Assembly (NCBI GenBank): GCA_902789175.1
Contig: CADANF010000014.1
Coordinates: forward strand, 1-64,000
Direction of reading: 5' to 3'
DNA from: an uncultured Lachnospiraceae bacterium
GTDB lineage: Bacteria > Bacillota > Clostridia > Lachnospirales > Lachnospiraceae
Length of the DNA stretch: 64,000 bases
Within the stretch, counting starts at the first letter, position 1; every line of letters starts with the position of its first letter. Made by a program: the position numbers and the translations under genes. This document shows positions 1-53,196 of the stretch, piece by piece. Under the pieces are notes generated by a model that worked only from the letters and a program-made list of their open reading frames with translations, made no database searches and was not told the DNA's origin.

Positions 1-120
1 ATCTTTAAGATCTCTTGTAAGCTCTATTCCGCCTGTTCCTCTGATAACATTTATTAGCCCTGCGTTCTTAAGCTGAGTAAGTATCTTTCTAATGATGACC
101 GACAGTAGTGGAAGGTAACA
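1..120 (-). pseudogene. Rrf2-like winged-helix regulator fragment, partial at window edge
   Basis: Read on the minus strand from about 120 to 1, this stretch stays open and encodes SVIIRKILTQLKNAGLINV followed by RGTGGIELTRDL. That is the second half of an Rrf2-type helix-turn-helix: recognition helix, AGL, and the R-G-x-G-G wing turn. The reading frame differs from that of the 116-residue gene just upstream, and no start or first helix for Rrf2 is present, so the fragment looks cut at about 103-120. The gene continues outside the window. The family match is by motif recognition only. It could be a disrupted gene at the border of an inserted island, or a frameshift. Confidence 0.5.
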
Positions 121-439
121 TATCCGTATCATCATCCAATATGTCTTTGATGGCTCGAACTATCGCCTCTCTCTTATTCTCAGCGATCCCTTCGAGGATA
201 TGCTTCTTTACACCCTGATTTACCGTTTCCTCGTCAAAATCTCTGGCATTATCGAACAACTCTTTAGGTACAGGATCGTGCCCGGATTTAAGATGACTCG
301 GAAGTTCCTTGGCATAACTATCAATAGAGCAGTCAAAGGCTGCAAAAATCCTTCGGCAGACATCACGTGCCTGATCAGACTTTCGTTTTCTTGCCTTATG
401 CAGAAGATTTATCATCGTTCCAAGACATATCTTCTTCAT
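89..439 (-). CDS. unknown 116-residue protein, last gene of defence operon, possibly truncated
   Basis: I do not recognise the family. The protein is charged and mostly helical by composition, with no membrane segment and no obvious catalytic motif; it has basic residues near the start (KARKRK) and an acidic run (DILDDDTD) near the end. It begins 38 bases after the vsr stop on the same strand, so it is probably the last gene of the Z1/PLD/methyltransferase operon. The reading frame stops after TVGHH, exactly where the sequence changes to an Rrf2-like frame. The C-terminus may therefore be artificial and the protein only the N-terminal part of a larger one. Confidence 0.5.
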   Translation of the reverse strand: MKKICLGTMINLLHKARKRKSDQARDVCRRIFAAFDCSIDSYAKELPSHLKSGHDPVPKELFDNARDFDEETVNQGVKKHILEGIAENKREAIVRAIKDILDDDTDMLPSTTVGHH

Positions 440-477
440 TTTGCATCCTCCTTCCTATCGCTCTTCCGACACATTTA

Positions 478-918
478 TTATTCATCAAAGTTGATCTTTT
501 TCTCGAATATTGCTTCTTCTATTGTTCGAATACACTCTTCAGTATTCTTATTTATTTCTTTACCCCAGAATCTAAGAACAGTCCACCCTGACGCCTTCAA
601 TTCTTTATTAACCTCGTCGTCTCGCTTCATATTCCCAGATATTTTGTTTATCCAATATTCTCTGTTATCACTTTTTTCGAGTCGTGGCAAAAGATCTTCC
701 CAGTCCTTCCCATGAAAAAACTCACTATCACAGAAAACAGCAATCTTGTACTTAGTAATAGCTATGTCTGGCTTTCCAGGAAGTGTCTTATAATTCTTTC
801 GATAGCGTATTCCCCTATGCCATAATTCCTTTCGAAGAAGAATTTCTATTTGAGTATCTTTTGATCGAATACGTCTCATATTCTTTCTTCTCTGTTCCGC
901 TGTAAGGTTATCCGCCAT
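478..918 (-). CDS. vsr: Very short patch repair (Vsr-type) endonuclease
   Basis: This 146-residue protein matches Vsr endonucleases, which nick DNA at T:G mismatches left by deamination of 5-methylcytosine and so protect methylated sites from mutation. The N-terminus MADNLTAEQRRKNMRRIRSKD, then RKELWHRGIRYRKN and GKPDI (the conserved aspartate region), are characteristic; the late FHGKDW segment corresponds to the usual zinc/nuclease region. The start at 918 is preferred over an upstream in-frame ATG at 957 because AAGGGCG sits just before it. The gene starts 14 bases inside the end of the methyltransferase gene, so the two are translationally coupled. Vsr-like proteins in such operons could also act as restriction nucleases rather than in repair. 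Confidence 0.9.
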   Translation of the reverse strand: MADNLTAEQRRKNMRRIRSKDTQIEILLRKELWHRGIRYRKNYKTLPGKPDIAITKYKIAVFCDSEFFHGKDWEDLLPRLEKSDNREYWINKISGNMKRDDEVNKELKASGWTVLRFWGKEINKNTEECIRTIEEAIFEKKINFDE

Positions 919-931
919 TTTTTCGCCCTTT

Positions 932-1909
932 CTATTCTGCCTGTAAGGCCTCAACAATTTTCTCTGCTATTCTATGAATAACAGCGACACAGACAGAGTT
1001 TCCGGCCTGCTTGTACAACTTAGCATCGGTCAAGGTATCCGGTAATTTGAAATCAGACGGAAATCCTTGCGCATTAAAGCACTCTTTTGGAGTCAACTTT
1101 CTTATCCCTGATGGAACTCTAACCAGAGGTACATTGTGCCCGCCCTCTCCCATGTTTGCAGTCAATGTCGGCACAACATTACTTTGATTCTTCCTGACAT
1201 AAACTCTTCTCCATTGATAAACAGTATTGGGATCGTCCATCTCCGCATCTAAGCGTTCAAACAAATCTCCTTTATATTTGCCCGGCGTATAGTAATATTT
1301 CTCGTCCACTCTACTATCAAAGTCTATTATGTCTTTTATCGTTTTAGTGAGCGGAATTGGATCTGGAAAGCTGAATCTTTCAAAATCTTCTTTCTCTCTA
1401 AAACCAACAATATATATTCTTTCGCGATTCTGAGGCGTGTCACCATAATCCATTGCGTTCAACACTTTATAGTCCACACAATACCCCGCGTCTTCAAGAG
1501 CCTCCCTTATCACTTTAAAAGTATTTCCTTTATCGTGTCCGACAAGATTCTTTACATTTTCCAAGAAAACGACTCTCGGCTTTTTTGCTTTAATAATCCT
1601 TAACAGTTCAAAAAACAGGGTTCCTCGTCCTTTTTCATCCTCAAAACCTTTTCTGTAACCAGCAACAGAAAAAGCTTGGCACGGAAATCCCCCAAGTATG
1701 GCATCTACATCCGGAATATCAGACGGGGAAACCTCCTTTATATCTTTGCATTCAACATTTACATCCGGAAAGTTTTCCTTAAATGTTGTAACTGGACTGA
1801 TATCGAACTCATTTGCATATACTGTATTAAATGCACCAGTCTCTTCAAATCCTAGATCAATACCTCCAACTCCCGCAAAGAATGAGGCACAAGTCATCTG
1901 TTTGCTCAT
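932..1909 (-). CDS. dcm: DNA (cytosine-5) methyltransferase
   Basis: This 325-residue C5-cytosine methyltransferase is of normal length for the family. Visible motifs in order are FAGVGGIDLGFE (motif I, SAM binding, about residue 10), GGFPCQAFS (motif IV, catalytic Cys), FLENVKNL (motif VI), QNRERIYIVGF (motif VIII) and, near the end, QAGNSVCVAVI (motif X). The target-recognition region lies between about residues 185 and 265; its target cannot be read from sequence. It is the protective methylase of the neighbouring Z1/PLD nuclease genes. The gene starts 25 bases after the Z1 gene ends and overlaps vsr at its 3' end. Confidence 0.95.
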   Translation of the reverse strand: MSKQMTCASFFAGVGGIDLGFEETGAFNTVYANEFDISPVTTFKENFPDVNVECKDIKEVSPSDIPDVDAILGGFPCQAFSVAGYRKGFEDEKGRGTLFFELLRIIKAKKPRVVFLENVKNLVGHDKGNTFKVIREALEDAGYCVDYKVLNAMDYGDTPQNRERIYIVGFREKEDFERFSFPDPIPLTKTIKDIIDFDSRVDEKYYYTPGKYKGDLFERLDAEMDDPNTVYQWRRVYVRKNQSNVVPTLTANMGEGGHNVPLVRVPSGIRKLTPKECFNAQGFPSDFKLPDTLTDAKLYKQAGNSVCVAVIHRIAEKIVEALQAE

Positions 1910-1934
1910 GTGTTTTTCCTTTCAAAATATCTTT

Positions 1935-3797
1935 TTAATGAACGTCATAATAGTTCATAAAATCTGGCAATTTGATATTTGGTACCCAGAGTCTACTCCT
2001 TTTCCACCCCAAATCTCCAGTTATCTCATACATTGTCAGAACAATACGATTGCTAAATTGATCTCCAAGTTGCCTGTCATTTGGAGATAGTAACGATCCC
2101 GTTCCCTGAGTAACTTCTCTTCCTCTTCTTACAATTAGTATGCTCTGTTCCGATGGATTCTCCGCCAATCTAGCATTAATAACACTTTGGAACGCAGTCA
2201 AGTTAAAGTCTTCAGATGCCTGAATATGCGCTAACACCTCTAAAACCATCTTAGCACTAACCTGATAATGCCCGGTCTCTTCAAAAGGCTCAAGTAATTT
2301 GTCTATAGCATCGACATCATCATTGTCCGGGTCATTCGGATAATAATTTGTTCCGCCAGCAACCAAATCAACCATTCTCATGTCTATGACATTCTTTCGA
2401 GTTGGATTTAGTCCCTCTGGATAGAAAATCTGTATCTTATCTAAGCCTCTATCAACTTGATAGATAATAGAATTGTTGCCTGCGTTAATATCTGAGAAAA
2501 GTTTGTAAAGTTCTTTTGTCAGATATACCCCCATCATTCCAGCATCTCTGTCATATCCAAACATACGCGAATGCTGCCACATTGTATCAGCCTGCGGTCG
2601 TTTTGCTGTTCTGGTGTAATAAAGCGTCTGCAGTTTAGGGAATGTCACTCCTCTTCCTAGAACATTTCCGCCAATTATGATGTTTGAGCCGGAATTATAT
2701 TCTTCGTCTCCTACACTTGTATCCCCGTTCATCAATAGAATCTTCAACTGCTTAGTCTCTAGAATCTTTTTTGCATAAGCCAAAATTCGGTCAAAGCTTT
2801 GCTTTTCTGCATCCTGGGGTTCAATCAATAGATACTCTTTACTAAAATCATCTACAATCTCCCCTGAATCGAAGTTATGCACTATGTAATCAATCTTTTT
2901 TAGTATCTGTGACTCCGCGCTAGTATGAGATGCTTTTCTTACACCCGGATGAATAACAAAATTGCACACTTTCTCTCCGGACAACATCATTTGAGATGAA
3001 ACTACTAGGTGATGAATAAGAGCACTATACAACCCATCTTTTAAGGGAGTATTGTTATACTTTTCAATAAACCTAATACTGTTATTCTCGCCACCTCCAA
3101 AGAAAAACTCTCCGCCTAAGTATCCTTTTCCAGGCTCAAAATAACACGTAAATGCAGGTCGGAAATCAGACATCGATGATTGCAGCAACAACGCTTGTGG
3201 TGTTCCCGTGACCTGTAAATACATACTTCCAATGGAAGCGTTTCTTATATTGGATAGCCTTTTATTAATGGTTGATACTCGATTCTTATTTACAAGCGTA
3301 TTGGGAGAAGCCGCATCAGCCTCATCATCTATTACAAATAGCGCATTTCCCTTTACAAAAGATGATGCCGCCAAAGTATTATACCACTGTAAAAGAACCT
3401 TTGAATTCTTCTTCAATACTATTACAGCTGGTTTTTCAAGAGCATTCTCGACAAATTTTTGTTTGTCTGTCTCTCCGCATATACAGAAATCACAACATGA
3501 CAAGTCCTTTACCACTCTGTCATAAGTCTGTTTTTGCAATGCAACATTATCTGTTGTAAGGATAATGAATAACGGGAAAGATGCATCCGCGGCGGCACAC
3601 ATGATGCCAAACATCTGGGCAGTTTTTCCTGCTTGAACATTTCCAAACAGAAGTCCGATATCATGTTCCGAAAACGAAAAGGTCTCGAGGTTCTTTTCTG
3701 AAAAGTCCTCTGCTGTTTCTCCAATCGAATCGGCCATATCTTTTTTGCCCAATGCTGTCAATTCTTCAAGATATTTTTTTAAATATGTTTTTGGCAT
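1935..3797 (-). CDS. Z1-domain SF2-like ATPase of a restriction/defence system
   Basis: A 620-residue protein with the hallmarks of Z1-domain proteins, helicase-like ATPases found beside DNA methyltransferases. Motifs are GNVQAGKTAQM (Walker A, about residue 52), FVIDDEADAA (Walker B, DExx-like), YLQVTGTPQALL (motif III region), and the C-terminal pair GGNVLGRGVTFP and QADTMWQHSRMFGYDRD, which resemble helicase motifs V and VI. In such operons it probably translocates on or remodels DNA and delivers it to the PLD nuclease encoded immediately upstream. The gene lies 12 bases after the PLD gene. The family assignment rests on motifs; the role in restriction is inference from context. Confidence 0.85.
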   Translation of the reverse strand: MPKTYLKKYLEELTALGKKDMADSIGETAEDFSEKNLETFSFSEHDIGLLFGNVQAGKTAQMFGIMCAAADASFPLFIILTTDNVALQKQTYDRVVKDLSCCDFCICGETDKQKFVENALEKPAVIVLKKNSKVLLQWYNTLAASSFVKGNALFVIDDEADAASPNTLVNKNRVSTINKRLSNIRNASIGSMYLQVTGTPQALLLQSSMSDFRPAFTCYFEPGKGYLGGEFFFGGGENNSIRFIEKYNNTPLKDGLYSALIHHLVVSSQMMLSGEKVCNFVIHPGVRKASHTSAESQILKKIDYIVHNFDSGEIVDDFSKEYLLIEPQDAEKQSFDRILAYAKKILETKQLKILLMNGDTSVGDEEYNSGSNIIIGGNVLGRGVTFPKLQTLYYTRTAKRPQADTMWQHSRMFGYDRDAGMMGVYLTKELYKLFSDINAGNNSIIYQVDRGLDKIQIFYPEGLNPTRKNVIDMRMVDLVAGGTNYYPNDPDNDDVDAIDKLLEPFEETGHYQVSAKMVLEVLAHIQASEDFNLTAFQSVINARLAENPSEQSILIVRRGREVTQGTGSLLSPNDRQLGDQFSNRIVLTMYEITGDLGWKRSRLWVPNIKLPDFMNYYDVH

Positions 3798-3809
3798 TAG
3801 AGTCCTCCA

Positions 3810-4997
3810 TTACTTGACATCCTTAGGTAAAAACGAAAGAACCCAAACATCTCTCATCTCACCGTTTTCGTCTGCAAGTTTATTTAGAGTCTTAGTTAAA
3901 GAGACCGAAGTTCTTCCATAGCTTTCAAGCTTCTGGTATGTAATCACTCCTTTGCAGTCTCTATAAATATCTCTGAGTCCTGCTCTCACCGCTTGTAGAT
4001 CTGCAGATGGACTATCCACCGGTTCTACAATTCCTGCCGCAACCAGTCTTCCTTTTAGCCAATACCCCAAGATTTTAAGATCTCCGTCTGATTCGAAATT
4101 CTTGCTATAATCTCCGGATACATGCATTTTAAATTTCCAACCATCATCTGTAATAACATAAAACGGCACATCCTTTGTTGGATAGTTAGGTTTTGATGTA
4201 GTTGTCGATGAAACAATAATCTCAGTTTCCCACCAGCCTCGTTCCGTCACAACGCCTGTTCTTGAATTCAGACGACCTTTTGCATAACATTTATTAATGT
4301 TCGATTTCATAAAATTCTGAGATGTTCCCGGCATTCCTGGAACTTTAAGAGGAATATCAAAGCGTATCTCTGTCTGTGCCTGCTTATAAGTCGACACATC
4401 TGCCATTGATACTTTTGTAACGCCTTCCACTCCGTTCAGCTTTGCATTATCTTCATGAATTATGGTTATCCCATCAATTTCATTTAGAGGCGTAGATACA
4501 GGAGAACTGACGACTCTTTTTAGATGATTATCAATATCACTACATTCGGCCGGATCTTCTGTTGAAATAGACAATTCATATTGCCTAAGATTATTGGCAT
4601 CAATCGACAATGCTCCTAAGTTGTGAGACCCGATCACTGCAGATTTCATTATGCCAGCTTTATAAAATCCATAAACTTTGCCATGATACTTCATCGATTT
4701 AGTCGCTCTAATATCACCGATTCCATCTTCTTGCCATGTTTGTTGAATTTTAATTGCAGTGTTATAAATGCCCTCTGGGAATCCTTCAATGCAGTACATC
4801 CCCATAACTATAACTACATTTTTTAAGTTATATTTCTTTACAAGCTGTTCTATCTCAATTAATGCTTTTTTCGAAGCATAACCAACAGCGCAGTACAGGG
4901 TATCTGATTCAGCAAGTTTTTCATTAACATATTCAGACAAGCAATATGATCCCGGCTCAGCTTTAAGAGGCGGGACATTCGAGTATATCAGTTTCAT
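3810..4997 (-). CDS. PLD-family restriction endonuclease (NgoFVII-like)
   Basis: A 395-residue phospholipase D-fold nuclease. The catalytic His-Lys signature is in MKYHGKVYGFYKAG, followed by VIGSHNLGALS at the position of the PLD Asn/Ser residues; a single HxK half-site predicts a homodimer with one shared active site, as in BfiI/NgoFVII-type enzymes. The C-terminal half (about 200-395) has no catalytic motif and is a plausible DNA-binding part. The start at 4997 has AAAGGAG six bases upstream; an adjacent ATG at 5000 and a more distal one at 5027 are less likely. It lies between a small HTH gene and the Z1 gene and is probably the cutting subunit. Confidence 0.85.
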   Translation of the reverse strand: MKLIYSNVPPLKAEPGSYCLSEYVNEKLAESDTLYCAVGYASKKALIEIEQLVKKYNLKNVVIVMGMYCIEGFPEGIYNTAIKIQQTWQEDGIGDIRATKSMKYHGKVYGFYKAGIMKSAVIGSHNLGALSIDANNLRQYELSISTEDPAECSDIDNHLKRVVSSPVSTPLNEIDGITIIHEDNAKLNGVEGVTKVSMADVSTYKQAQTEIRFDIPLKVPGMPGTSQNFMKSNINKCYAKGRLNSRTGVVTERGWWETEIIVSSTTTSKPNYPTKDVPFYVITDDGWKFKMHVSGDYSKNFESDGDLKILGYWLKGRLVAAGIVEPVDSPSADLQAVRAGLRDIYRDCKGVITYQKLESYGRTSVSLTKTLNKLADENGEMRDVWVLSFLPKDVK

Positions 4998-5033
4998 CAT
5001 TTGCTCCTTTCTGAGCGAAGCTGGCAATACTAA

Positions 5034-5231
5034 TCATTGTTTTGTTTGATCTTTTACGTATTTTCCACTTCTTATTCGTTCGTCTTTTGGCTTTTCAGCA
5101 GTGCTTGGGATCACCCAATAATAACCAACCTTAGTTGCACCTTCAATTCTATTTGTGCTGCACAAGGTTTGAACACGTCTAATCGATATCCCCCACTTTT
5201 CTGCTGTTTCTCTAATAGATAAGTATTCCAT
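5034..5231 (-). CDS. small HTH DNA-binding protein (MerR/excisionase-like)
   Basis: A 65-residue protein starting SIRETAEKWGISIRRVQTLC, a helix-turn-helix of the MerR/excisionase (HTH_17-like) type, then GYYWVIP, the usual beta-wing. The ribosome site AGGTGGAG precedes the ATG. It is the first gene of the operon ahead of PLD nuclease, Z1, dcm and vsr, and sits downstream of a strong promoter. A likely job is control of the operon, comparable to a controller protein of a restriction system, perhaps acting at the near-palindrome at 5242-5258. That role is inferred. Confidence 0.8.
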   Translation of the reverse strand: MEYLSIRETAEKWGISIRRVQTLCSTNRIEGATKVGYYWVIPSTAEKPKDERIRSGKYVKDQTKQ

Positions 5232-5241
5232 AACTCTCCAC

Positions 5242-5258
5242 CTATTATTCGAAAATAG
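5242..5258. promoter_or_regulatory. candidate operator in defence-operon leader
   Basis: CTATTATTCGAAAATAG is an imperfect palindrome centred on TTCGAA, placed between the promoter and the HTH start codon. It is where a controller protein would be expected to bind. No direct evidence links it to the HTH product. Confidence 0.3.
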
Positions 5259-5276
5259 TCACACGTAAACATTCTA

Positions 5277-5305
5277 ATTATAAGCCAAAGTACGAACAAA
5301 GTCAA
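5277..5305 (-). promoter_or_regulatory. sigma-A promoter of the Z1/PLD/methyltransferase operon
   Basis: On the minus strand TTGACT (5305-5300) is followed after 17 bases by TATAAT (5282-5277). Spacing and -10 are ideal. Transcription would start near 5270, about 40 bases ahead of the HTH gene, and could cover all six leftward genes. Confidence 0.8.
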
Positions 5306-5352
5306 ATGATAAAACTGATTTTACTCTGTTGCCCTCAAAATGAGTGTTTCTA

Positions 5353-5622
5353 TTATTTTCTCCCGTTCATTTGCCATTTATCGTGCTTCCTGATCCCCCT
5401 CACTGCCTGCCGCAGGGTGTTCGCCCTGCCGTGCTGATGATACGGATGAGAAGCCTTGTGCTTGTGAAATATAATCACCGTCCCCTGCTCCGGATACTCA
5501 GGATTATGCAGGTACCAGTAATGGCCGGTATTCCTGGACATGATCGTCACATCGAAGGCATCTGTGGCAATGATGGTAAAATACTGTGGATCCAGACATT
5601 TCAGGTCTTCACTGTTGAACAT
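5353..5622 (-). CDS. small conserved mobile-element protein, function unknown
   Basis: An 89-residue protein, rich in His and Tyr (SRNTGHYWYLHNPEYP; HKHKASHPYHQHGRA), without a membrane segment. I recognise the pattern from integrative-element gene clusters beside parAB but know no function. It starts 14 bases inside the end of parB with GGAAGGAAG as ribosome site, so it is coupled to it. The GC content is visibly higher than in the defence genes to the left, which fits the parAB block rather than that operon. Confidence 0.65.
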   Translation of the reverse strand: MFNSEDLKCLDPQYFTIIATDAFDVTIMSRNTGHYWYLHNPEYPEQGTVIIFHKHKASHPYHQHGRANTLRQAVRGIRKHDKWQMNGRK

Positions 5623-6601
5623 AGACAGCTTCCTTCCCGGTAAACCACGCTTCCAGAGCCTGTGTCACCACCTCAGCCATCTGCACGGCATTCATGCCAG
5701 AGAAGTATTTCTCGCAGATATTGTCGGGCAGCTTCACTCTTGTTCCTTCATCGCAGGAAGCCTTTCTTACGATCATCCCTTCGATAAGATTCTCCGTCAT
5801 GGTCTCAGTCAGTTCCCCACCGTGTTTCCGCAGTTCCTCGGCCATCTTAGGCTTCAGTTTCACACCCATTGCACTGATGACCTTATACACAGTCTCCTGC
5901 TCTTCCTCCGACAAATAGGACACATCAACTGCTGCCAACAGGGCAATCTTGTTATCATCGACCAGATCCTTGAATGGACGGATCAGGCTGTTGATCCGAA
6001 GATACCGCGCCGCGCTCCGGCTTGAATATCCATATTCCTCAGCAAGGACATCCCTGGTCTTGAACCTGTGGCCATTATGTCCACAAGTCTCTGTCGGAGT
6101 TTCACCGTTCAGGATCTGAAGTTCCCGGATAATATCATTCCGCTTTCCCTGACAGCGCACCTTGTCGTACTGCCTCCCCATGACTGTAGCCTTCTCAGAG
6201 GGAAGCAGATCTCCAAAGGACCGCTGTATCACATTCGTTTCAATCACATAGATATAAGCTTCTTCATCAGAGATCCCTTCCTTCACAATAGCCGGGATCT
6301 CCGTAAGTCCAGCGATCTTGGCCGCATTCTGTCTGTTGTGGCCGGAAAGCATTTCATACCCCTTACCGACCTTACGGACAATGACGGGATTCAGAACCCC
6401 GTGTTCCTTCACGCTCTCCACCATATCATTTAGCCTTTCCCCCTCATACAGGCGGAACGGATGGTCATGGAACGCCTTGATCTTATCTACAGGCAGCATC
6501 TGTACGCCGCCTGCTACTGTTTCTGTGGTCTGCGCCGGGGATTCCCCAGTCAGCATATCCACGGCATCAAATATCTTCCTCTTCGGTGCATTAGCCTTCA
6601 T
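5609..6601 (-). CDS. parB: ParB/Spo0J-type partition protein
   Basis: A 330-residue ParB-family protein. The ParB N domain lies at about residues 30-120, with LPVDKIKAFHDHPFRLYEG, HGVLNPVIVRK and the CTP/DNA-contact motif LSGHNRQNAAK; a central HTH follows (LAEEYGYSSRSAARYLR). It would bind parS-like sites and work with ParA to maintain or transfer a plasmid-like element. The ATG at 6601 lies inside the end of parA (11-base overlap) with GGGGGAGG upstream. The chromosomal Spo0J genes usually sit near oriC; this one is in a mobile-looking, GC-richer block. Confidence 0.9.
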   Translation of the reverse strand: MKANAPKRKIFDAVDMLTGESPAQTTETVAGGVQMLPVDKIKAFHDHPFRLYEGERLNDMVESVKEHGVLNPVIVRKVGKGYEMLSGHNRQNAAKIAGLTEIPAIVKEGISDEEAYIYVIETNVIQRSFGDLLPSEKATVMGRQYDKVRCQGKRNDIIRELQILNGETPTETCGHNGHRFKTRDVLAEEYGYSSRSAARYLRINSLIRPFKDLVDDNKIALLAAVDVSYLSEEEQETVYKVISAMGVKLKPKMAEELRKHGGELTETMTENLIEGMIVRKASCDEGTRVKLPDNICEKYFSGMNAVQMAEVVTQALEAWFTGKEAVYVQQ

Positions 6602-7367
6602 ATGCGATCACCTCCCCCGCCAGCCTGTCATAAGCTTTGCACGCATTACTCTCCGGCGCATATTCCGCCAGAGGCTCGCTGTAGTATACGGACTCTCCAA
6701 CCTTTACAGTGTTCGGTATCTTGGTCTTAAAGATTCGGATCTGCCCCTGGAATGTCTCCATCACCTGCTCTGTGATCGTCTTACAGAGGATTGTCCTTGC
6801 ATCGCACATCGTGAGCAGGATTCCAGCCACATCCAGCCTCTCATTGATGCGGCTCTTAATCTTCTTAACCGTCTTCAGAAAATCCTGCAAACCTTTCATC
6901 GCTAACAGCTGTGGATTCACGGTCACGATGACTTCATCTGATGCCACCATCGCATTGATATTGAGTGCACCTAAAGACAGACTGGTATCAATGAGAATAA
7001 TGTCATAATCATCCCTGAGCGGTTTCAGGATCGACGCCAGCATCCTTTCCGTTCCCATTTCCAGTCTCAGCTTTGCTTCCACTGCAGACAGGCCTATGGT
7101 TGACGGGATAAAGTCCACGCCATTCCTTTCCCAGATATATTCTCCCCTATCCGGAAGTTCATCATCTTCGATCTGAGCCAAAATCAGATCTCCGATAGCC
7201 ACATCTACTTCTTCTGCTCCGAAACATGTTGTCAGGTTGGCCTGCGGATCCAGATCCACAGCCAGAACCTTTTTCCCTTTTTTATGAAGCGAATAGGCAA
7301 GGTTGAAAGCCGTCACAGACTTGCCAACGCCACCCTTCATCGCTCCGATCATGATGATCTTACCCAT
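6591..7367 (-). CDS. parA: ParA/Soj-type partition ATPase
   Basis: A 258-residue ParA ATPase. The deviant Walker A is KGGVGKSVTAFNLAY near the start, with AVDLDPQANLT (A' motif) and ILIDTSLSLGALNINAM (Walker B region) following, typical of Soj/MinD-like ATPases. It moves or positions DNA with ParB. The start at 7367 has AAAGGAGGCGTG upstream; the gene follows the SymE-like gene by three bases and overlaps parB. It probably belongs to the maintenance module of an integrative element. Confidence 0.93.
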   Translation of the reverse strand: MGKIIMIGAMKGGVGKSVTAFNLAYSLHKKGKKVLAVDLDPQANLTTCFGAEEVDVAIGDLILAQIEDDELPDRGEYIWERNGVDFIPSTIGLSAVEAKLRLEMGTERMLASILKPLRDDYDIILIDTSLSLGALNINAMVASDEVIVTVNPQLLAMKGLQDFLKTVKKIKSRINERLDVAGILLTMCDARTILCKTITEQVMETFQGQIRIFKTKIPNTVKVGESVYYSEPLAEYAPESNACKAYDRLAGEVIAYEG

Positions 7368-7370
7368 AAA

Positions 7371-7703
7371 TCACGCCTCCTTTTCCGCTCCGTCGTACTG
7401 CGCCTGTCTCTCTGCGACAAACTGAGCGCGGAGTCTTTCCTTTTCAACTTCAAACCTCTTCTGCAGAAGCTTTGTCTCTCTTTCCATGAAAGCTGTCTCA
7501 GCTTCCTTCAGTGCCGCCCTCTCAGTATCCGGCGTTATGACCAGCCTGCCGTTCTCACAGCTAACAGAAACATATCCTCCGATATCGAATCCAAGTTCCT
7601 TCAGCCACTGACCCTTCAGCATGATCGTCGGTGTCGGTCTGTACTTGTATCCGCTCATTCCGTACACCTTCACATTTCTTGATGCCTTCAATTTCTGTTC
7701 CAT
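7371..7703 (-). CDS. SymE-like / SpoVT-AbrB-fold protein
   Basis: A 110-residue protein. Residues 8-60 (KVYGMSGYKYRPTPTIMLKG, WLKELGFDIGGYVSV, ENGRLVITPD) match the SymE toxin family, whose fold is AbrB-like. The C-terminal half is a charged, coiled-coil-like helix. Such genes occur at the end of Firmicute integrative elements beside parAB. The start at 7703 is chosen because GAAGGAGG is just upstream; an in-frame ATG at 7868 would add 55 unconvincing residues. Whether it is toxic or only a DNA-binding regulator is unknown. Confidence 0.75.
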   Translation of the reverse strand: MEQKLKASRNVKVYGMSGYKYRPTPTIMLKGQWLKELGFDIGGYVSVSCENGRLVITPDTERAALKEAETAFMERETKLLQKRFEVEKERLRAQFVAERQAQYDGAEKEA

Positions 7704-7927
7704 CTGGTTTCCTCCTTCGATAGTCATTGTTGTGATGGTCAAGCAGCGCTGGGAGCCACCCGGCATCCTGCAAAAGGGTAAAAAAATGGACTGTCTCAGT
7801 CTGCCTGGAGCATCCGCTCCTGCAAACTGATTCAGTCCTACCCAAATCGACCATATTCTGCTTTTCATTGTCCGGTGCCTTTCCCCACCGGTTCTCCGGG
7901 ACCTTACCTACGCGTTTTTGAATAGGA

Positions 7928-8839
7928 CTATACCGCCGAAGCCCGTGTATTTACGGCGCTCCCGTGCGGTATCACTATTATCACGCGTTCCCCGGTTGCT
8001 GATATAAGTAGTGCTTTATCTTCGCCCTGTTCTCGTATCTTTTTCAAGTTATTGATAAAGTCAATCTGCATCGAATTCGGAGATAACTTGTACTGCTCAA
8101 GTGAAACAACAGGACTCGCCTCAGCAGCAAGTTTTCTCTGTTTCTTAATTGTCTGATATTTTGTTCTGTATTCCTCAATAAACTCCTCATACTTACTTGT
8201 ATGATTCTTATCATCCCACAGTGCATCAAATGCTGACTGGATGTTCTTATACATTTCACCTTCAGCAGTTGATACCATTTTTGTATTCCACTCTTTATTA
8301 ACAGAGAGCGCTTTTCCTGTCATATTGGAGCTTCCAATGATGAATGTATAAGTTTCATCACGCTTAAAGATATAGCCTTTTGTATGGAATCCGATTCTTT
8401 CAGTGTCAGGTGTTGGAGTTGTACCATCTTCTAAAACTGCACTCTCACCACCTGTGAATTCTCCATTGGATACTCCTGATAATACTGCATCCTCATGATA
8501 CATACGAAATTCGATATTCTTAAACACAGCAAGCTTATCAAGTGCTTTGGGATCTGTGAACACATTGTAATCAGTTGTAAGAACCTTTCCCGGAACACCT
8601 CTTTCTTCAAGCTCCTTAAAAGTAAGAAGCAGCGGCTCAATTCCACCAAGGGTTATAAAGGCAACACTAAAAGTAAAGGAATCACATTTCTTAAGCTCTT
8701 CCTCAATAGATGTAAGTACCTTTACTCCCTTTGTATGATCATTTGATATGAAGTCCGGCTTATATGCAGCACTGGATTTATTGGTTGAATCTATAAATGC
8801 AGTGGTTGCACCAGATATAATTTTTTCTTTATTGTTCAT
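7928..8839 (-). pseudogene. PLD-nuclease/helicase gene truncated in Walker A (copy 1)
   Basis: About 283 residues of a PLD-plus-SF2 helicase protein, followed by 20 residues of foreign tail. The PLD part shows HTKGYIFKRDETYTFIIGSSNMT (His-Lys, then Ser-Asn), and the helicase domain begins with PNSMQIDFINNL and ALLISATG. The intact protein would continue G-x-G-K-T, so the reading frame is cut inside Walker A at 7991 and the ATPase is missing. The start at 8839 has GAGG about ten bases upstream. An N-terminal PLD fragment might still be made, but nothing indicates a function. Full-length relatives are usually several times longer. Confidence 0.85.
7930..7990. mobile_element. terminus of integrative element abutting helicase fragment 1
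   Basis: Directly after the helicase codons end (7991) lies a GC-rich stretch with inverted arms ATACCGC (7930-7936) and GCGGTAT (7966-7972), 29 bases apart, the outer arm 18 bases from the breakpoint. It is unlike the AT-rich helicase sequence and leads into the SymE-parAB block. This is the expected look of an attachment-site half with recombinase-binding repeats. Confidence 0.5.
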
Positions 8840-8904
8840 TAAAAATTTACCTCGACTAAAGCCATATGAATACAATATATCATATACACTCTTTCTATAA
8901 AAGA

Positions 8905-8939
8905 AAGAACAGCCGAATTGATCATCAACTGTTCTTTCA
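8905..8939. terminator. hairpin downstream of ORF6N gene
   Basis: AAAGAACAG and CTGTTCTTT form nine-base arms around a 17-base loop; on the minus strand the stem is followed by CTTTTAT. It probably ends leftward transcripts from the XRE/ORF6N genes before the helicase fragment begins. Confidence 0.5.
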
Positions 8940-8947
8940 TAACGGTA

Positions 8948-9040
8948 TTATTTTATAACAACACTCTCACTCTTACGAATGTTGATCTCAACTGCAGGCG
9001 AACCATCTGAAGAAGAAACTTCCCTAGTTGTAAAAGCCTC
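8948..9040 (-). pseudogene. 30-codon C-terminal protein remnant
   Basis: Between the ORF6N gene and helicase fragment 1 a minus-strand frame reads EAFTTREVSSSDGSPAVEIN then IRKSESVVIK and a stop, preceded at once by a stop codon. The composition reads like genuine protein, but no start is possible. It may be the tail of a deleted gene of the island. This is weak, by-eye evidence. Confidence 0.25.
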
Positions 9041-9086
9041 TTATGTATTTATATCTTTCATATTATTTGTATTCCTTATATATTTA

Positions 9087-10106
9087 CTATCTCAAAACCA
9101 AAACTGGTTGATGCAATAGATCTGATATCATTGGATAGTATAATTCCTTATTATCCGCCTGTGATATGGTTGATATCTGTCTTCCAGCATCTTTTGAGGA
9201 AGCTCCACAATGATAAATCTTCTCGCCTCTACACTTATAGTCAATTATTATATATCTATCATGAAATTTACCCCCAGTTTTCTGAAAAGTTATATTTACA
9301 TTAGGGTATTCTGAATTGAATAAATTATATTCTGTTCTAGTAAGATGCCTTCCCACATTATCACTAAATATTATTACATCTACACTTGAAGGAACATTTC
9401 TCAGTAAAAACAAAGTTTTTGAACCTATATAATTATCTACCACATATATTTTCTTTTTGGCTTTACTATATATTTCTGTATAAGCAATATTGGCATCAAA
9501 GTATCTATTTGAATAAATCACATATTCAATACCCTTATCAGGCAAAGAAAAGCTCTCTATCACTTTAGAAAGATCATCTTTAGTTATCATATTTTCTTTT
9601 ATATCGCTAATATCCTTCGTGTTCTCAGAAGTCTGTAATGATAATTGAAGCAATTCTGAAGACGAAGCTAACACTGGACCTGTTTGGATAAAATCTTTCA
9701 TTCTTTTAAATGCTTTTACTAATTCCCTACTTTGATGAGTTGCTAACTCTCCCTTTAATACAGTCATTAGCATATAAATACCTTGTTCAGTGAAAGCATA
9801 CGGCATATATTTAAGATTTTTTCCTCGTCCTGTTCCATCTTTCAAGGTGAAATTTTTGCACCTTGAAAGTTCATCTATATCTTCTTCATTTAGTTGAAAC
9901 ATGAAATCGTCACCAATGAACTTTTCTTTATTATTTTTCACCTGTCTGTTGAAGTTCTTTGTTTCATATCCATATATTTGAGCAAGGTCTCTATCCAACA
10001 TTACTTTTTTGCCACGTATCTCATAGATGTTTTTCTTTAATGAATCTACTGTAATTTCAACCGGTACGAGCTCATTAACTTTTTCTGACAATTCCATTTC
10101 CTCCAT
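9087..10106 (-). CDS. ORF6N-domain protein with PLD-like C-terminus
   Basis: A 339-residue protein. Residues 15-110 form an ORF6N (KilA-N-type) DNA-binding domain: YEIRGKKVMLDRDLAQIYG, KNFNRQVKNN and YAFTEQGIYMLMTVL are typical. A linker (about 150-185) leads to a second domain with KIYVVDNYIG, VIIFSDN and KFHDRYIIIDY plus YHCGASSKDAG, which resembles a PLD-like half domain without a clear HxK. ORF6N proteins occur in phages and integrative elements as regulators or antirepressors. It lies 70 bases after a small XRE gene. Function here is unknown. Confidence 0.8.
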   Translation of the reverse strand: MEEMELSEKVNELVPVEITVDSLKKNIYEIRGKKVMLDRDLAQIYGYETKNFNRQVKNNKEKFIGDDFMFQLNEEDIDELSRCKNFTLKDGTGRGKNLKYMPYAFTEQGIYMLMTVLKGELATHQSRELVKAFKRMKDFIQTGPVLASSSELLQLSLQTSENTKDISDIKENMITKDDLSKVIESFSLPDKGIEYVIYSNRYFDANIAYTEIYSKAKKKIYVVDNYIGSKTLFLLRNVPSSVDVIIFSDNVGRHLTRTEYNLFNSEYPNVNITFQKTGGKFHDRYIIIDYKCRGEKIYHCGASSKDAGRQISTISQADNKELYYPMISDLLHQPVLVLR

Positions 10107-10176
10107 TCTTTTGATACTTAAATACTGAATATAATAGATTTTTCTGTGAGGTGAAATATTTGCACCCTTAACAAAA

Positions 10177-10377
10177 CTATTGTTTATCTATAATTGATAT
10201 TTTCTTCTCAATAGCCGCCCTATACCACATCAATCGAAGTACATAGTCCGGAAGCTCCCTTTTCTCAGCTTCCCAATCCTGTACTGTACGGTATGGAATC
10301 CCAAAATAGTCACTAAACTCACGGCGATTCATCCCCATCATATCTCTTAATTCTTTTACTTTTTTACCTCTGCCCAT
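10177..10377 (-). CDS. small XRE-family HTH regulator
   Basis: A 66-residue helix-turn-helix protein: KELRDMMGMNRREFSDYFGI, then PYRTVQDWEAEKRELPDYV. It is nearly all HTH. The gene precedes the ORF6N gene in the same direction. It resembles in length and sequence the XRE protein at 42091-42297, which precedes a RhuM gene; the two pairs look like versions of one module type. Confidence 0.85.
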   Translation of the reverse strand: MGRGKKVKELRDMMGMNRREFSDYFGIPYRTVQDWEAEKRELPDYVLRLMWYRAAIEKKISIIDKQ

Positions 10378-10456
10378 GCTAATATCCTCTATTAATACAA
10401 ACTAACGCTCTGCGTTATTCTCATATTATCAAGTTCATAAATATCTGTCAATTAAA

Positions 10457-10489
10457 ACCAGACCTACCCTAGTCGTAGATCTGGTTTCA
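10457..10489. terminator. inverted repeat, terminator-like
   Basis: AAACCAGA pairs with TCTGGTTT, with a further CTAC/GTAG pairing inside. It stands in the 280-base gene-free stretch between the XRE gene and helicase fragment 2. Confidence 0.4.
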
Positions 10490-10592
10490 TTACCTCCTGT
10501 ATCATTTTGCTATAATAATCAAGCTTGTCTATATAACAATATTTGAAGAAAAATACCCCTTAAAAATCAGAAAAAACGCTTTTTTTGAAAAA

Positions 10593-10657
10593 GGACAAAG
10601 TGTGGGAGTGCCCTATTTATAAGATCTCCGCGACTTTGTCCCTATTATGACATATTA
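10593..10657. mobile_element. terminus of a second integrative element abutting helicase fragment 2
   Basis: Inverted arms GGACAAAGT (10593-10601) and ACTTTGTCC (10633-10641) are 31 bases apart; the outer arm ends 16 bases from the point where the helicase reading frame breaks (10658). The layout copies that at 7930-7990 with different sequence. Both share a GNATAATAGNGA stretch between arm and breakpoint when read on the minus strand. This suggests the end of an element from a related recombinase family. No recombinase gene is present nearby. Confidence 0.5.
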
Positions 10658-11272
10658 CCCGGTTGCACTGATTAGTAAAGCTTTTTCCTCACCATCATCA
10701 ACAAGCTTGCTCAAATTGTTGATAAAATCTACCTGCATGGAGTTTGGCTTTAAACGATACTGTTCCAGAGATACTACGCCCTTTTTTAATGCCGTTTTCT
10801 GGCCACTGCCATTATCCGCTTCGATTGCATCTCTTGCTGCTTCAAGCGCTATCTTTCTCTGTTTCTTAATAGTCTCATATCGAGTTTTATATTCATCTAT
10901 AAAATCAGAATACTTCTGAGTATGGTTCTTATCATTCCACAGCTTTTCAAAAGTACCGCTTACATTCTGGTACATTTCTCCTTCAGCAGTCGAAATGACT
11001 TTTGTATTCCACTCTTTATTAACCGCAAGAGCCTTCTGAGTCATATTTGAAGAACCAATAAGAATCGTAAATGTTCCATCATTCTTAAAAATATACCCCT
11101 TTGTATGAAAACCAATCTTCTCAGTGTCAACAGATGTACCATCACCATCAGCTGTTTCATATATCGGATGCAAAGTAACTTCTTCTCTATACATACGTAG
11201 TTCAATATTGGTGAGTTCCGCCAGCTTATCCAAAGCTTTCGGATCAGTGAACATGTAATAATCAGTAGTAGG
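10655..11272 (-). pseudogene. PLD-nuclease/helicase gene fragment (copy 2), cut at both ends
   Basis: About 204 codons homologous to copy 1: TTDYYMFTDPKALDKL, GFHTKGYIFKND, ILIGSSNMTQKALAV, then SMQVDFINNLSKL and ALLISATG followed at once by a stop. The 3' break falls after the same GCAACCGGG as in copy 1, before G-K-T of Walker A. The 5' end is replaced by a dispersed repeat at about 11272, so roughly the first 100 residues and any start are missing. The two copies differ clearly in sequence, so this is not a recent duplication. Confidence 0.85.
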
Positions 11273-11392
11273 AACCTTGGCTCGTTGCCTACATTTTCCT
11301 CTCGCCTAGCGGCTCGATGTCGGGCAGTCGCCAAAGTTCCTACATTTTGTGCAAGCACAATGCAGGAACCTTGGCTCGTTGCCTACGCAAAA
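11271..11392. repeat. dispersed repeat family 1, copy A
   Basis: Two modules lie in tandem. The first (11287-11329) carries CCTCTCGCCTAGCGGCTCGA and GTCGGGCAG, shared with 28485-28543. The second (11329-11392) contains GTTCCTACATTTTGTGC and GCACAATGCAGGAAC, which fold into a hairpin, then CTTGGCTCGTTGCCTACGC; it is almost identical to 56204-56268. The shorter GGAACCTTGGCTCGTTGCCTA also occurs at the left border, where it interrupts helicase fragment 2. Confidence 0.8.
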
Positions 11393-28484: not shown

Positions 28485-28543
28485 CCTCTCGCCTGACGAC
28501 TGCCTACATTTCCCTCTCGCCTGGCGGCTCGATGTCGGGCAGT
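28485..28543. repeat. dispersed repeat family 1, copy B (first module only)
   Basis: CCTCTCGCCTGGCGGCTCGA and TGTCGGGCAGTC match 11293-11329 with one change, and a shorter CCTCTCGCCTGACGACTGCC precedes it. It fills the gap between the zinc ATPase end and the NifU-like promoter. Confidence 0.75.
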
Positions 28544-28555
28544 CTATATTTTATG

Positions 28556-42094: not shown

Positions 42095-42297
42095 AAAAGT
42101 TTCTCCCCCCTTCCTTTCATCAGTTCCTCATACTTCAACTGATAGGCAATCAGCCTCGGTATATATTCCGGAGGCGTTCTCCTTCCCGCTTCCCAGTCTT
42201 CCAAGGTACGAACAGGGATACCCGTATGTTCAGAGAATTCTTTACGTGACAGCCCTGTGCTTTCTCTCAGTTCTTTAATTAGTCTTGCAGTTTCCAT
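42091..42297 (-). CDS. small XRE-family HTH regulator
   Basis: A 68-residue HTH protein (IKELRESTGLSRKEFSEHTG, PVRTLEDWEAGRRTPPEYI), co-translated with the RhuM gene. It is paralogous to the protein at 10177-10377, which stands before an ORF6N gene. It probably represses its own operon. Confidence 0.88.
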   Translation of the reverse strand: METARLIKELRESTGLSRKEFSEHTGIPVRTLEDWEAGRRTPPEYIPRLIAYQLKYEELMKGRGEKLL

Positions 42298-45207: not shown

Positions 45208-45889
45208 TCTTTTTTTCTACTATTACATTTCCTGTTTTTACAATGCTGTTAGAAGGAACAAAACCTCTAACAGGTGAAAGTGGATAGATATTAGTGTTAC
45301 GGCCAATTACTGATCCTGGATTAAGAACTGAATTACAACCAACTTCTACATGGTCGCCGAGCATTGCTCCAAACTTCTTAAGTCCTGTTTCAATAGCGAT
45401 ATCTGAATATTCATCATATCCTTTAACCACTACAAGAGTCTTGTCTGACTTAACATTAGATGTGATAGATCCGGCTCCCATATGTGACTTATAGCCAAGG
45501 ATTGAATCTCCCACATAATTATAATGTGGAACCTGAACATTATCGAAAATGATAACATTTTTTAATTCTGTTGAATTTCCGATAACACAGTTTTCGCCGA
45601 TAAGAGCATTGCCTCTTATAAATGCACACTGTCTAACCTCAGTATTAGCGCCGATTATGGCTGGTCCATTGATATAAGCGCTTTCAAATACAGTTGCTGT
45701 CTTATGGATCCATACATTCTCCCCACGCCTTATATAATCATCTCCAAGAGTTGCCCCAATCTTTAAGATAGTATCCTTGATAAGAGGAAGCATTTCCCAT
45801 GGATATGTAAGTCCCTCTAATTCCTTAGCTGCCATTGTATGGCTAAGGTCATATAAACTGCTAATTTTTGCTTCATCTACGTGACTCAT
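45200..45889 (-). CDS. left-handed beta-helix (hexapeptide) protein, GlmU-like
   Basis: A 229-residue protein with hexapeptide repeats from about residue 60 (VFESAYINGPAIIGANTEVR, GNALIGENCVIGNSTELKNV, VGCNSVLNPGSVIGRNTNIY), the fold of LpxA/GlmU transferases. It looks like the acyltransferase half of a UDP-GlcNAc pyrophosphorylase-type protein, but no nucleotidyltransferase domain is present. It overlaps topB by four bases. Substrate unknown. Confidence 0.85.
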   Translation of the reverse strand: MSHVDEAKISSLYDLSHTMAAKELEGLTYPWEMLPLIKDTILKIGATLGDDYIRRGENVWIHKTATVFESAYINGPAIIGANTEVRQCAFIRGNALIGENCVIGNSTELKNVIIFDNVQVPHYNYVGDSILGYKSHMGAGSITSNVKSDKTLVVVKGYDEYSDIAIETGLKKFGAMLGDHVEVGCNSVLNPGSVIGRNTNIYPLSPVRGFVPSNSIVKTGNVIVEKKND

Positions 45890-51529: not shown

Positions 51530-53187
51530 TATTCAAGGAACTCCTTAAGCTTACGGCTACGGCTAGGATGTCTTAATTTTCTTAATGCCTTAGCCTCAAT
51601 CTGTCTGATACGTTCACGAGTTACAGAGAACTCTTTTCCTACTTCTTCAAGTGTTCTTGCTCTTCCATCATCAAGGCCAAATCTTAAACGAAGGACCTTC
51701 TGCTCACGATCTGTAAGAGTATAAAGTACATCATTTAACTGTTCCTTAAGAAGTGTAAATGCAGCTGCGTCTGATGGTACTGGAACATTATCATCCTGGA
51801 TAAAATCTCCTAAATGGCTGTCTTCCTCTTCACCGATAGGTGTTTCAAGAGATACAGGTTCCTGTGATATCTTTAAGATTTCACGAACTCTTTCTTCTGG
51901 GATCTCCATCTTCTTTGCGATCTCATCTGGAGCTGGCTCACGTCCCAGATCCTGTAGGAGCTGTCTTGATACTCTGATAAGTTTATTGATAGTTTCAACC
52001 ATATGAACAGGTATTCTGATAGTTCTTGCCTGATCGGCGATAGCTCTTGTGATAGCCTGTCTGATCCACCATGTTGCATATGTTGAGAACTTGTATCCTT
52101 TTCTATAATCAAATTTTTCTACAGCTTTGATAAGACCAAGGTTACCCTCCTGAATAAGGTCAAGGAAAAGCATTCCACGTCCAACATATCTCTTGGCAAT
52201 ACTTACTACAAGACGAAGGTTAGCCTCTGCAAGTCTCTGCTTGGCTGCTTCACCCCCGGCGATGATTCTCTTCATATCGCTCTTCTTCTTGCCAACAAAT
52301 GTATTATATTTATTTTCTTTTTCGCTTTCGTAAAGATTGATCTCTTCCTGAGATGCATTAGGTGGTAACTTGTAGAACTCAGCAAGCACTTCATCAGTAA
52401 TGACACGGTTTGGATCATCATCTATGAAGAAATCCTTCATAAGTGCTTCAGCAATGTCTTTATTTTCCATAGCTGCAGCAAGTTTGATCTCGTCGTCTGC
52501 AAGAAGGAGCTGTACTTTACCAATCTCCTTAAGATACATACGAACCGGATCTTCAATGTTTATACCATCAGGAACAGTAAGATCCAGTTTTTCTACATCA
52601 ATATCTTCATCATCATCTGTTTCAAAATCATCATCTTCATCATCAAGATCTGGAAGATCTTCTTCTTCATCAGGTTTGATAGTAAGAACGTCAATCTTTT
52701 TCTCATCAAAGAATGAAAGGATCTTACCCATTGTATCTGCATCCAGAAGGTAATTATACTCTCCAAATGTATCAACGATATCTGAATCCATGATAACGTT
52801 CTTATTCTTTTTTGCAGTTGAAACCAGCAGGTTGATCTTTTCCATAAGGATTCTCTGCTTATCTTCATCAGTAAGATCTGATGCATTTGCCTCAGCCTTC
52901 TTTAATACATCACCTATCTCATCTTCTTTAACCGTTGCTTTCTTTGTTGCTGCTTTACCAGTCTTCTTTGCCTGTGCCTTTTCAACTACTTCCTCAGCAG
53001 TCTTTTTTGTTGTCTTCTTTGTCTTGGTCTTTTCCTCTTCTGTATTCACAGTTTTTTTTGCCGCTGGCTTCTTTGTTTCTTTTTCTTCTTTTTTTGCCAC
53101 CGGCTTCTTAGCTGCTTGCTTTTTAACTTCTTTATCTTTAACTTCAGCTACTTCTTCAGTTACTTTTTTCTTGGTTGCCATTTTCAC
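51529..53187 (-). CDS. rpoD: primary sigma factor RpoD/SigA with long basic N-terminal tail
   Basis: A 552-residue sigma-70. Regions 1.2 ([16 protein letters not shown]), 2 ([35 protein letters not shown]), 3 and 4 ([20 protein letters not shown]) are all complete. Unusually, residues 1-90 form a Lys/Ala/Thr-rich tail with repeated KKPAAKK-type units, and residues about 175-205 are very acidic ([20 protein letters not shown]). The Firmicute norm is about 360-380 residues. GTG at 53187 has AAGGA six bases upstream; ATG at 53181 is the alternative. It lies in the dgt-dnaG-rpoD cluster. Confidence 0.96.
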
Positions 53188-53196
53188 ATACCATCC

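What the first reader, a model, noticed from the sequence alone, without database searches (positions are those of the whole stretch)
7928..11272. Two diverged PLD-helicase genes truncated at exactly the same codon, next to Walker A
Copy 1 (7991) and copy 2 (10658) both follow the homologous gene up to GCAACCGGG, that is Ser-Ala-Thr-Gly, and change to unrelated sequence at the next base; the intact gene would go on with the G-K-T of Walker A. Independent random deletions would hardly agree to the base. A simple explanation is that recombinases integrate at a target inside the conserved P-loop codons of these helicase genes.
Basis: partly seen in the sequence, partly recalled or inferred. Interest (0 to 1): 0.78.

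Follow-up and report, generated by a model that had tools for sequence, protein, structure and literature searches.

The report
Mobile elements split a restriction gene
Both broken gene copies are the front halves of an anti-phage restriction enzyme gene, cut at the same spot in its ATP-binding motif where mobile DNA elements insert, so the agreement is a real insertion site and not a coincidence.

Summary
Window copies 1 and 2 are 5' halves of a SauUSI-like type IV restriction gene (PLD nuclease, helicase, DUF3427), both cut inside the Walker A Gly codon. One correction: the gene contributes ...AACCGG; the third G comes from the inserted DNA. Uninterrupted relatives run on as SATG|TGKT. Across nine genomes or records 12 broken N-halves stop at this base; six other fragments end elsewhere. 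The sequences after the two breaks are related element left ends. Two relatives hold the whole arrangement: N-half (a remnant in one), a 36-kb element with three tandem large serine recombinases, then the C-half. In the other, the N-half is 96% identical to an uninterrupted copy elsewhere, and identity stops exactly at the GG. Smaller cargo units without recombinase, each ending in a fresh N-half, stack upstream of an intact gene, best read as accretion of decayed elements. A related element splits a CpaF-type ATPase gene inside its Walker A codons. In the window's own genome neither the C-half nor a matching recombinase was found. This is a new variant of a known kind.

The parts
7992..8839 (-). 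Copy 1: 5' half (PLD nuclease part) of a SauUSI-like type IV restriction gene, ending at GG of the Walker A Gly codon
   Evidence: intact relatives about 1000-1067 aa
7922..7991 (-). Left end (type iii) of a second element, starting with the third G; box GTGATAATAGTGA and a hairpin
   Evidence: similar to type i left ends, 0 of 2000 shuffles against G001, 2 of 2000 against copy 2's; fold z -1.3 only
1..7991 (-). Visible part of the element inserted in copy 1: AbrB-like (by eye), ParA, ParB, NgoFVII-type endonuclease, Z1 protein, C5 methyltransferase, Vsr; runs off the contig start
   Evidence: ParA/ParB relative in G026
10659..11281 (-). Copy 2: older 5' half of the same gene family, also lacking its own 5' part
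10451..10658 (-). Left end (type i): third G, box GTCATAATAGGGA, hairpin, promoter-like stretch, SD-like site, second hairpin (features after the first hairpin named by eye)
   Evidence: no Rfam family
10177..10377 (-). Cargo ORF: 66-aa protein that looks like a small HTH regulator
   Evidence: reading frame; similar ORFs in G028, G041 and G456; not scanned against Pfam
9087..10106 (-). Cargo gene: ORF6N-domain protein
   Evidence: Pfam ORF6N E 4.6e-32
7992..10658 (-). Cassette-like unit: left end, cargo, fresh N-half; no recombinase ORF seen
   Evidence: same architecture in relatives

Best explanation
Each break is the left junction (attL) of a mobile element integrated by large serine recombinases into a fixed target: the GG of a Gly codon in the Walker A stretch of a SauUSI-like type IV restriction gene. 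The full elements are about 36-kb integrative elements carrying defence-like genes and a triplet of serine recombinases; they separate the gene into N- and C-halves. Shown by comparison: the site, the element ends, both halves around two full elements, and a matching uninterrupted allele. Inferred: that these recombinases do the reaction. Also inferred: recombinase-less units [left end - cargo - N-half] are decayed elements that accreted at the same site (CIME-like). When an outer element leaves, the nearest N-half is rejoined to the C-half, so the restriction gene is restored with a new nuclease half while old N-halves decay upstream. In the window, copy 2 is the older displaced N-half, copy 1 the newer one, and a ParA/ParB/restriction-modification element then entered copy 1. 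(The odds given here and for the rivals are not exclusive: ordinary recombination can act beside insertion.)
For: 12 broken N-halves stop at the same base. G004 (one-contig genome) and G456 hold N-half | element | C-half with three LSRs each. G456 and G013 share cargo plus N-half at 96.3% over 1164 nt, ending at the GG; G013 continues into the C-half, G456 into the element. Changepoints between intact genes: the 5 best-supported pairs with a less similar N-half and a more similar C-half put the change at -9 to -12 nt, inside the shared 12-15 nt core. Window junction 1 resembles junction type i. The left-end model R1, built from nine of these places, matches 11 places in 9 of 61 genomes at E<1e-8, so it adds two.
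Against: No C-half in G000. Of six PF07508 places in G000 I compared the three at C10:111-113.5 kb: they are 23-30% alike only and lie beside phage-like genes (by eye); the other three were not compared, but a search with LSR2 found nothing at E<=1e-60. Six N-half fragments end elsewhere (G029, G025 twice, G014, G456, G015). The strongest changepoint of all (G014/G010, +235) and the next N-low/C-high pair (G013/G030, +108, support 66 to 133) lie elsewhere in the gene, and the support for G001/G030 runs from -15 to +101. G001 and G013 share an N type (91.7% identical) and may be one event. No excised circle or activity was seen.
Confidence: 0.86

Rival explanations
1. Homologous recombination: one ancient junction N-half|left end arose once, and RecA exchange between the 0.85-kb N repeats spread it with new cargo.
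For: N repeats are long and similar; changepoints away from the joint exist (G014/G010 at +235, G013/G030 at +108); deletions with microhomology occur.
Against: Three diverged left-end types share the base; two full LSR elements sit between the halves; the best-supported N/C swaps break at the core and not inside N.
Confidence: 0.15
2. Integron-like system: a structured (hairpin) site recombined by an integrase acting in trans, with the C-half as platform.
For: Units without recombinase, newest next to the C-half, hairpin at left ends.
Against: The full elements carry serine recombinases, which explain it without a tyrosine integrase; hairpins may be terminators, and two of six folded left ends (type iii and G020a) are not better than shuffles. 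No integron integrase was searched for.
Confidence: 0.06
3. Independent random deletions or assembly artefacts.
For: Draft assembly, contig starts at window 1.
Confidence: 0.01

Closest known systems
ICEs with a triplet of serine integrases (streptococci; PMC4701971, passages read)
   Same: Three tandem serine integrases with Resolvase and Recombinase (most also Zn ribbon) domains; insertion inside conserved protein genes (mutT, traG, hsdM) with very short 2-8 bp repeats
   Different: Target here is the Walker A codons of a SauUSI-like gene (and of a CpaF-type gene); a conjugation module was not looked for; cargo includes many defence-like genes
IMEs with serine integrases disrupting helicase genes (PMC5357655 and PMC5704250, passages read)
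   Same: IMEs inserted at one site inside snf2 helicase genes; one listed with RepA and ParB
   Different: Those snf2 genes belong to Tn5252-type ICEs; the position relative to the Walker motif is not stated in the passages read
CIME accretion (described in PMC5704250, passages; Pavlovic 2004 and Bellanger 2011 seen only as references there)
   Same: Decayed recombinase-less units keep att sites and stack in tandem
   Different: Here the inner site is the N-half/C-half joint of an intact gene, so each unit brings a new N-half of the target gene
SauUSI (type IV restriction enzyme; PMC3874153, passages read)
   Same: PLD N-terminus, P-loop NTPase middle, DUF3427 C-terminus
   Different: The window holds only N-halves
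Integrons (search listing only)
   Same: Tandem cassettes, newest near a platform
   Different: Serine, not tyrosine, recombinases in the full elements

Membership tests
Triplet-serine-recombinase integrative element | Three tandem large serine recombinases | tested here: met
   For the relatives' elements: G456, Pfam on all three; G004, three ORFs 65, 53 and 49% identical to them. Not found for the window's own element
Triplet-serine-recombinase integrative element | Site-specific insertion inside a conserved gene, minimal repeat | tested here: met
   shared core GG; both halves flank the G004 and G456 elements
Integrative mobilizable element | Relaxase / oriT | tested here: inconclusive
   MobA/MobL-like ORF in G004 named by eye from its N-terminus, not scanned; none noted in G456 or the window, no oriT search made
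CIME / accretion | Units lacking recombinase and bounded by att sites | tested here: met
   cassettes in G000, G001, G002, G013, G017, G020; no recombinase domain among the 20 cargo or neighbouring proteins scanned; the remaining ORFs were only read by eye
CIME / accretion | Mobilised in cis by a neighbour element | not testable with these tools
   needs excision assays
SauUSI-like type IV restriction enzyme | PLD + P-loop helicase + DUF3427 in the intact gene | tested here: met
   G030 protein: PLDc_2, ResIII, Helicase_C, DUF3427; PADLOC mREase_IV E 3.6e-212
SauUSI-like type IV restriction enzyme | Window copies complete | tested here: not met
   only the PLD part present; no DUF3427 in G000
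Integron | IntI tyrosine integrase and attC/attI sites | not tested
   no IntI search made; serine recombinases found instead

The most novel reading that the evidence does not exclude
A group of serine-recombinase elements uses the DNA coding for the Walker A loop as its landing site in unrelated ATPase families (a SauUSI-like restriction enzyme and a CpaF-type secretion ATPase). At the restriction gene, repeated insertion, decay and loss act as a cassette machine: it stacks defence genes and repeatedly swaps the nuclease half of the enzyme while keeping the gene intact.
Probability: 0.3. Interest if true: 0.8.

Novelty: new variant of a known kind. Interest (0 to 1): 0.62.

Why it matters
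It names a new insertion site: a conserved functional codon run that a P-loop gene must keep, which would give an element a target that cannot easily mutate away. It shows how a restriction gene can become the anchor of a growing defence island, with its nuclease half exchanged at a fixed joint. It also gives testable att sites and recombinases for genome engineering, and a simple rule (gene half plus the box GTnATAATnGnGA) for finding such islands.

Tried and rejected
Considered and rejected. Integron-type system: the geometry fits, but the two full elements carry serine recombinases. Group II intron or Rfam RNA at the junction: no family matched the left ends in the five loci (gathering thresholds) or the window stretch (only sub-threshold hits, none on the left ends); an intron exists elsewhere in the G020 array. 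Phage or viral origin: an exact left-end pattern gave 0 matches in viral contigs; one viral-collection record, G456, encodes the gene halves, but I did no systematic test for phage genes on it. Other copies of the type iii left end: 7 of 397 genomes matched the pattern, one being the window itself; the other six were read by eye and look like chance. Plasmid search for the window element: no near DNA match; the ParA protein matches at least 5000 plasmid records, too many to help.

Walker A as a general target of serine-recombinase triplets: not supported as a rule. Of eight further LSR-bearing stretches in the genus read, one (G051:C178) ends in what looks by eye like a tyrosine-integrase gene, four contigs stop inside or at the recombinases, and three (G021:C17 and two in G006) could not be resolved. 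The hairpin as a functional site is undecided: fold z-scores of six left ends run from -4.9 to +0.26, type iii reaching only -1.3.

Count details. The 12 copies at the site include G002 and G004 (internal deletions) and G017a (a piece of N, then only its last dozen bases). G014, G010 and G054 keep only about 15 nt of N before a left end and were not counted. G028 and G027 run into contig ends and were not judged. x45 duplicates G057 and was dropped before the 9 of 17 count. The changepoint analysis used 14 of 17 intact genes (G007, G008 and G040 left out) with at most 700 nt of the C-half, 91 pairs, of which the best 45 were printed. Only nine of the 61 genomes' LSR hits were followed into their surroundings, as far as the contigs allowed.

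Literature: absence of 'Walker A' as an integration target rests (full-text library, listings only) and on the passages of PMC4701971 and PMC5357655 seen; it is not proof. The paper searches were likewise seen as listings.
Full report
What the window shows. The two copies lie on the minus strand: copy 1 at 8839..7991 and copy 2 at 11281..10658. Both carry a PLD domain and stop at GCAACCGGG, after which copy 1 reads GAACGCGTGATAATAG and copy 2 TAATATGTCATAATAG. The window is the start of contig C14 of a 78-contig, 99.6% complete genome. The nearest named relatives returned are Eubacterium ruminantium and other Lachnospiraceae, mostly from rumen.

What the gene is. Uninterrupted relatives have open frames of about 1000-1067 aa that run SATG|TGKT. 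The G030 protein has PLDc_2, ResIII, Helicase_C and DUF3427 domains and is matched by PADLOC's type IV restriction model at E 3.6e-212. This is the SauUSI layout as described in PMC3874153 (passages). Of 61 genomes of the genus, 28 have a match to the N-half.

The break recurs at one base. In the arrays that I extracted, 12 N-half copies not joined to a C-half end at the same base: window copies 1 and 2, G001, G002, G013, G017 (two), G020 (two), G004, G015 and G456. Six other N-half fragments end elsewhere (G029, G025 twice, G014, G456, G015); G029's was clearly shortened later, since it runs into the middle of the same left-end sequence. The third base of the Gly codon is G in 12 of 12 broken copies and in 9 of 17 intact ones (Fisher p 0.009, copies not independent), so the exchange point is GG and the third G belongs to the element.

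What follows the break. Behind copy 2 and its equivalents lies a nearly constant stretch of some 210-225 nt with a box GTCATAATAGGGA, a hairpin, a promoter-like region, an SD-like site and a second hairpin. A diverged version (type ii) follows the break in G020, G015 and G456; its kinship to type i was judged from the alignment, not tested by shuffling. The sequence behind copy 1 (type iii) is a third version: it aligns in register with type i (score 38, 0 of 2000 shuffles for G001; 33, 2 of 2000 for copy 2) but not significantly with type ii (344 of 2000). A covariance model built from nine type i places matches 11 places in 9 of 61 genomes at E below 1e-8, two more than it was built from: a second one in G001 and one in G020:C57. 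No Rfam family matches the left ends.

Both halves around an element. In the IMG/VR record G456 the N-half ends at 6214 and the C-half, cut by the record's end after about 200 residues, begins at 42134 on the same strand. Of the proteins between, eight were scanned: three consecutive serine recombinases (Resolvase, Recombinase, Zn ribbon), a RepA_N protein, an HTH-PIN-ankyrin protein, a NERD protein, an FtsW-like protein and one without a match; a methyltransferase and other defence-like genes were named by eye. In the one-contig genome G004 (AC2031) an N-half remnant ends at 9153 and a full C-half (97% identical to G030's) begins at 45484 of the extracted region. The 36.3 kb between hold a UvrD-like helicase, an SF2 helicase matching a PADLOC candidate and a MutH-type endonuclease, and three recombinases 65, 53 and 49% identical to those of G456. 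The right ends read TTTAATCTGGG|ACGGGC (G004) and ACCTTTGGA|ACAGGC (G456) and carry a copy of a similar box.

Empty against occupied site. G456 and G013 share cargo and N-half at 96.3% over 1164 nt, and the alignment stops at 6213 | 15910, the GG. G013 goes on into the C-half (its contig ends about 100 residues later), G456 into the element. The same unit in G029 (97.9% identical to G013 over 1510 nt) is followed by another cassette, though the last part of its N-half is deleted there.

Arrays. In G001, G002, G017, G013 and G029 one or two displaced N-halves lie upstream of a gene that is intact as far as the contig goes, all on the same strand, separated by different small cargo. Cargo matches AbiEi, Abi_2, Schlafen AlbA, HTH plus M78 peptidase next to a PIN-like protein (below Pfam's cut-off), PRiA4_ORF3 and the PDC-S27 candidate. 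Among the 20 cargo or neighbouring proteins scanned no recombinase appears. Intact genes are N/C mosaics: for G001 against G017, G030, G002 and G052, and for G013 against G052, the best changepoint is 9 to 12 nt before the joint, within the shared core; for G001/G030 the support reaches to +101. G001 and G013 share an N type, so this may be one event. Other pairs change elsewhere, among them G014/G010 at +235 (the strongest of all) and G013/G030 at +108, so ordinary recombination also acts.

Reading. A full element lands at GG and splits the gene. Elements decay and lose their recombinases but keep their ends. A later element beside such a remnant can carry it along; when that element leaves, the remnant's N-half is joined to the C-half. 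This is the accretion of cis-mobilizable elements described in PMC5704250 (passages), with the twist that each remnant carries a new front half of the target gene. The steps after insertion are inference.

The window. Copy 2 is the older displaced N-half, followed by a unit (left end, HTH-like ORF, ORF6N gene) that ends in copy 1. Copy 1 was then entered by a different element with AbrB-like, ParA, ParB, NgoFVII-type endonuclease, Z1, C5 methyltransferase and Vsr genes, which runs off the contig. G000 has no C-half, no DUF3427 and no LSR2 relative at E<=1e-60. It has six PF07508 places; the three compared are 23-30% identical to the element recombinases and lie in phage-like surroundings, the other three were not compared. 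The other end of the window's element is therefore unseen.

A second Walker A. The closest ParB relative (a contig-end fragment, 67% identical) is in G026, with a ParA beside it and a weak left-end match just upstream (26.4 bits; E 0.087, 0.0018). It follows the N-half of a T2SSE/CpaF-type gene (profile 7-149); the C-half (149-286) is on another contig, directly behind three serine recombinases 34-37% identical to those of G456. Joining the two short flanks gives KAKYNIFVSGGTGAGKTTFLNAL in frame, so the break is inside that gene's Walker A codons, again at GG, three codons earlier relative to GKT. The link across two contigs of one draft genome is inferred. Other triplets in the genus do not all follow this: one sits in what looks like a tyrosine-integrase gene and others are unresolved.

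Known or new. Triplet serine integrases disrupting conserved genes are known in streptococcal ICEs (mutT, traG, hsdM; PMC4701971 passages), and serine-integrase IMEs sit in snf2 helicase genes (PMC5357655 passages). New here, as far as the searches and those passages go, are the Walker A target, the restriction-gene anchor and the repeated exchange of the nuclease half.

Noticed in passing
window 11286-11329 and 28501-28544: A 44-nt repeat (95% alike) lies right where copy 2 loses its 5' part; its identity was not studied.
   Followed up: no
window 478-5027: Restriction-modification cluster (C5 methyltransferase, Vsr, Z1 protein, NgoFVII-type PLD endonuclease) riding on the element in copy 1.
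   Followed up: partly
L147 10244-11666 (G456); G004 region 52919-54772; L063; L064: A two-gene unit (134 aa plus 336 aa, the latter with a SocA/Panacea domain in G001's copy) sits next to the third recombinase in G456, between pieces of a recombinase remnant in G004, and downstream of the C-half in G001 and G002 (98.8% alike): possibly a small mobile toxin-antitoxin unit.
   Followed up: partly
L119 (G012:C154), L121 (G020:C57), L128 (G001): Left-end sequences without an N-half before them; in G001 one is fused to a cupin gene through about 8 nt of shared sequence.
   Followed up: partly
G030:C15 about 8129 (L076 about 129); G004:C1 about 1577797 (L170 about 10797): Decayed C-half starts behind type ii right ends, so old C-halves also pile up downstream.
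   Followed up: partly
L070 8189-9989 (G020:C82): A group II intron lies upstream of the G020 array.
   Followed up: no
L067 15677-16261 and equivalents: A NUDIX gene follows the C-half in several genomes (Pfam on G014's; the cluster occurs in 8 of 24 extracted regions, two of them the same contig); mutT is itself a known target of triplet elements.
   Followed up: no
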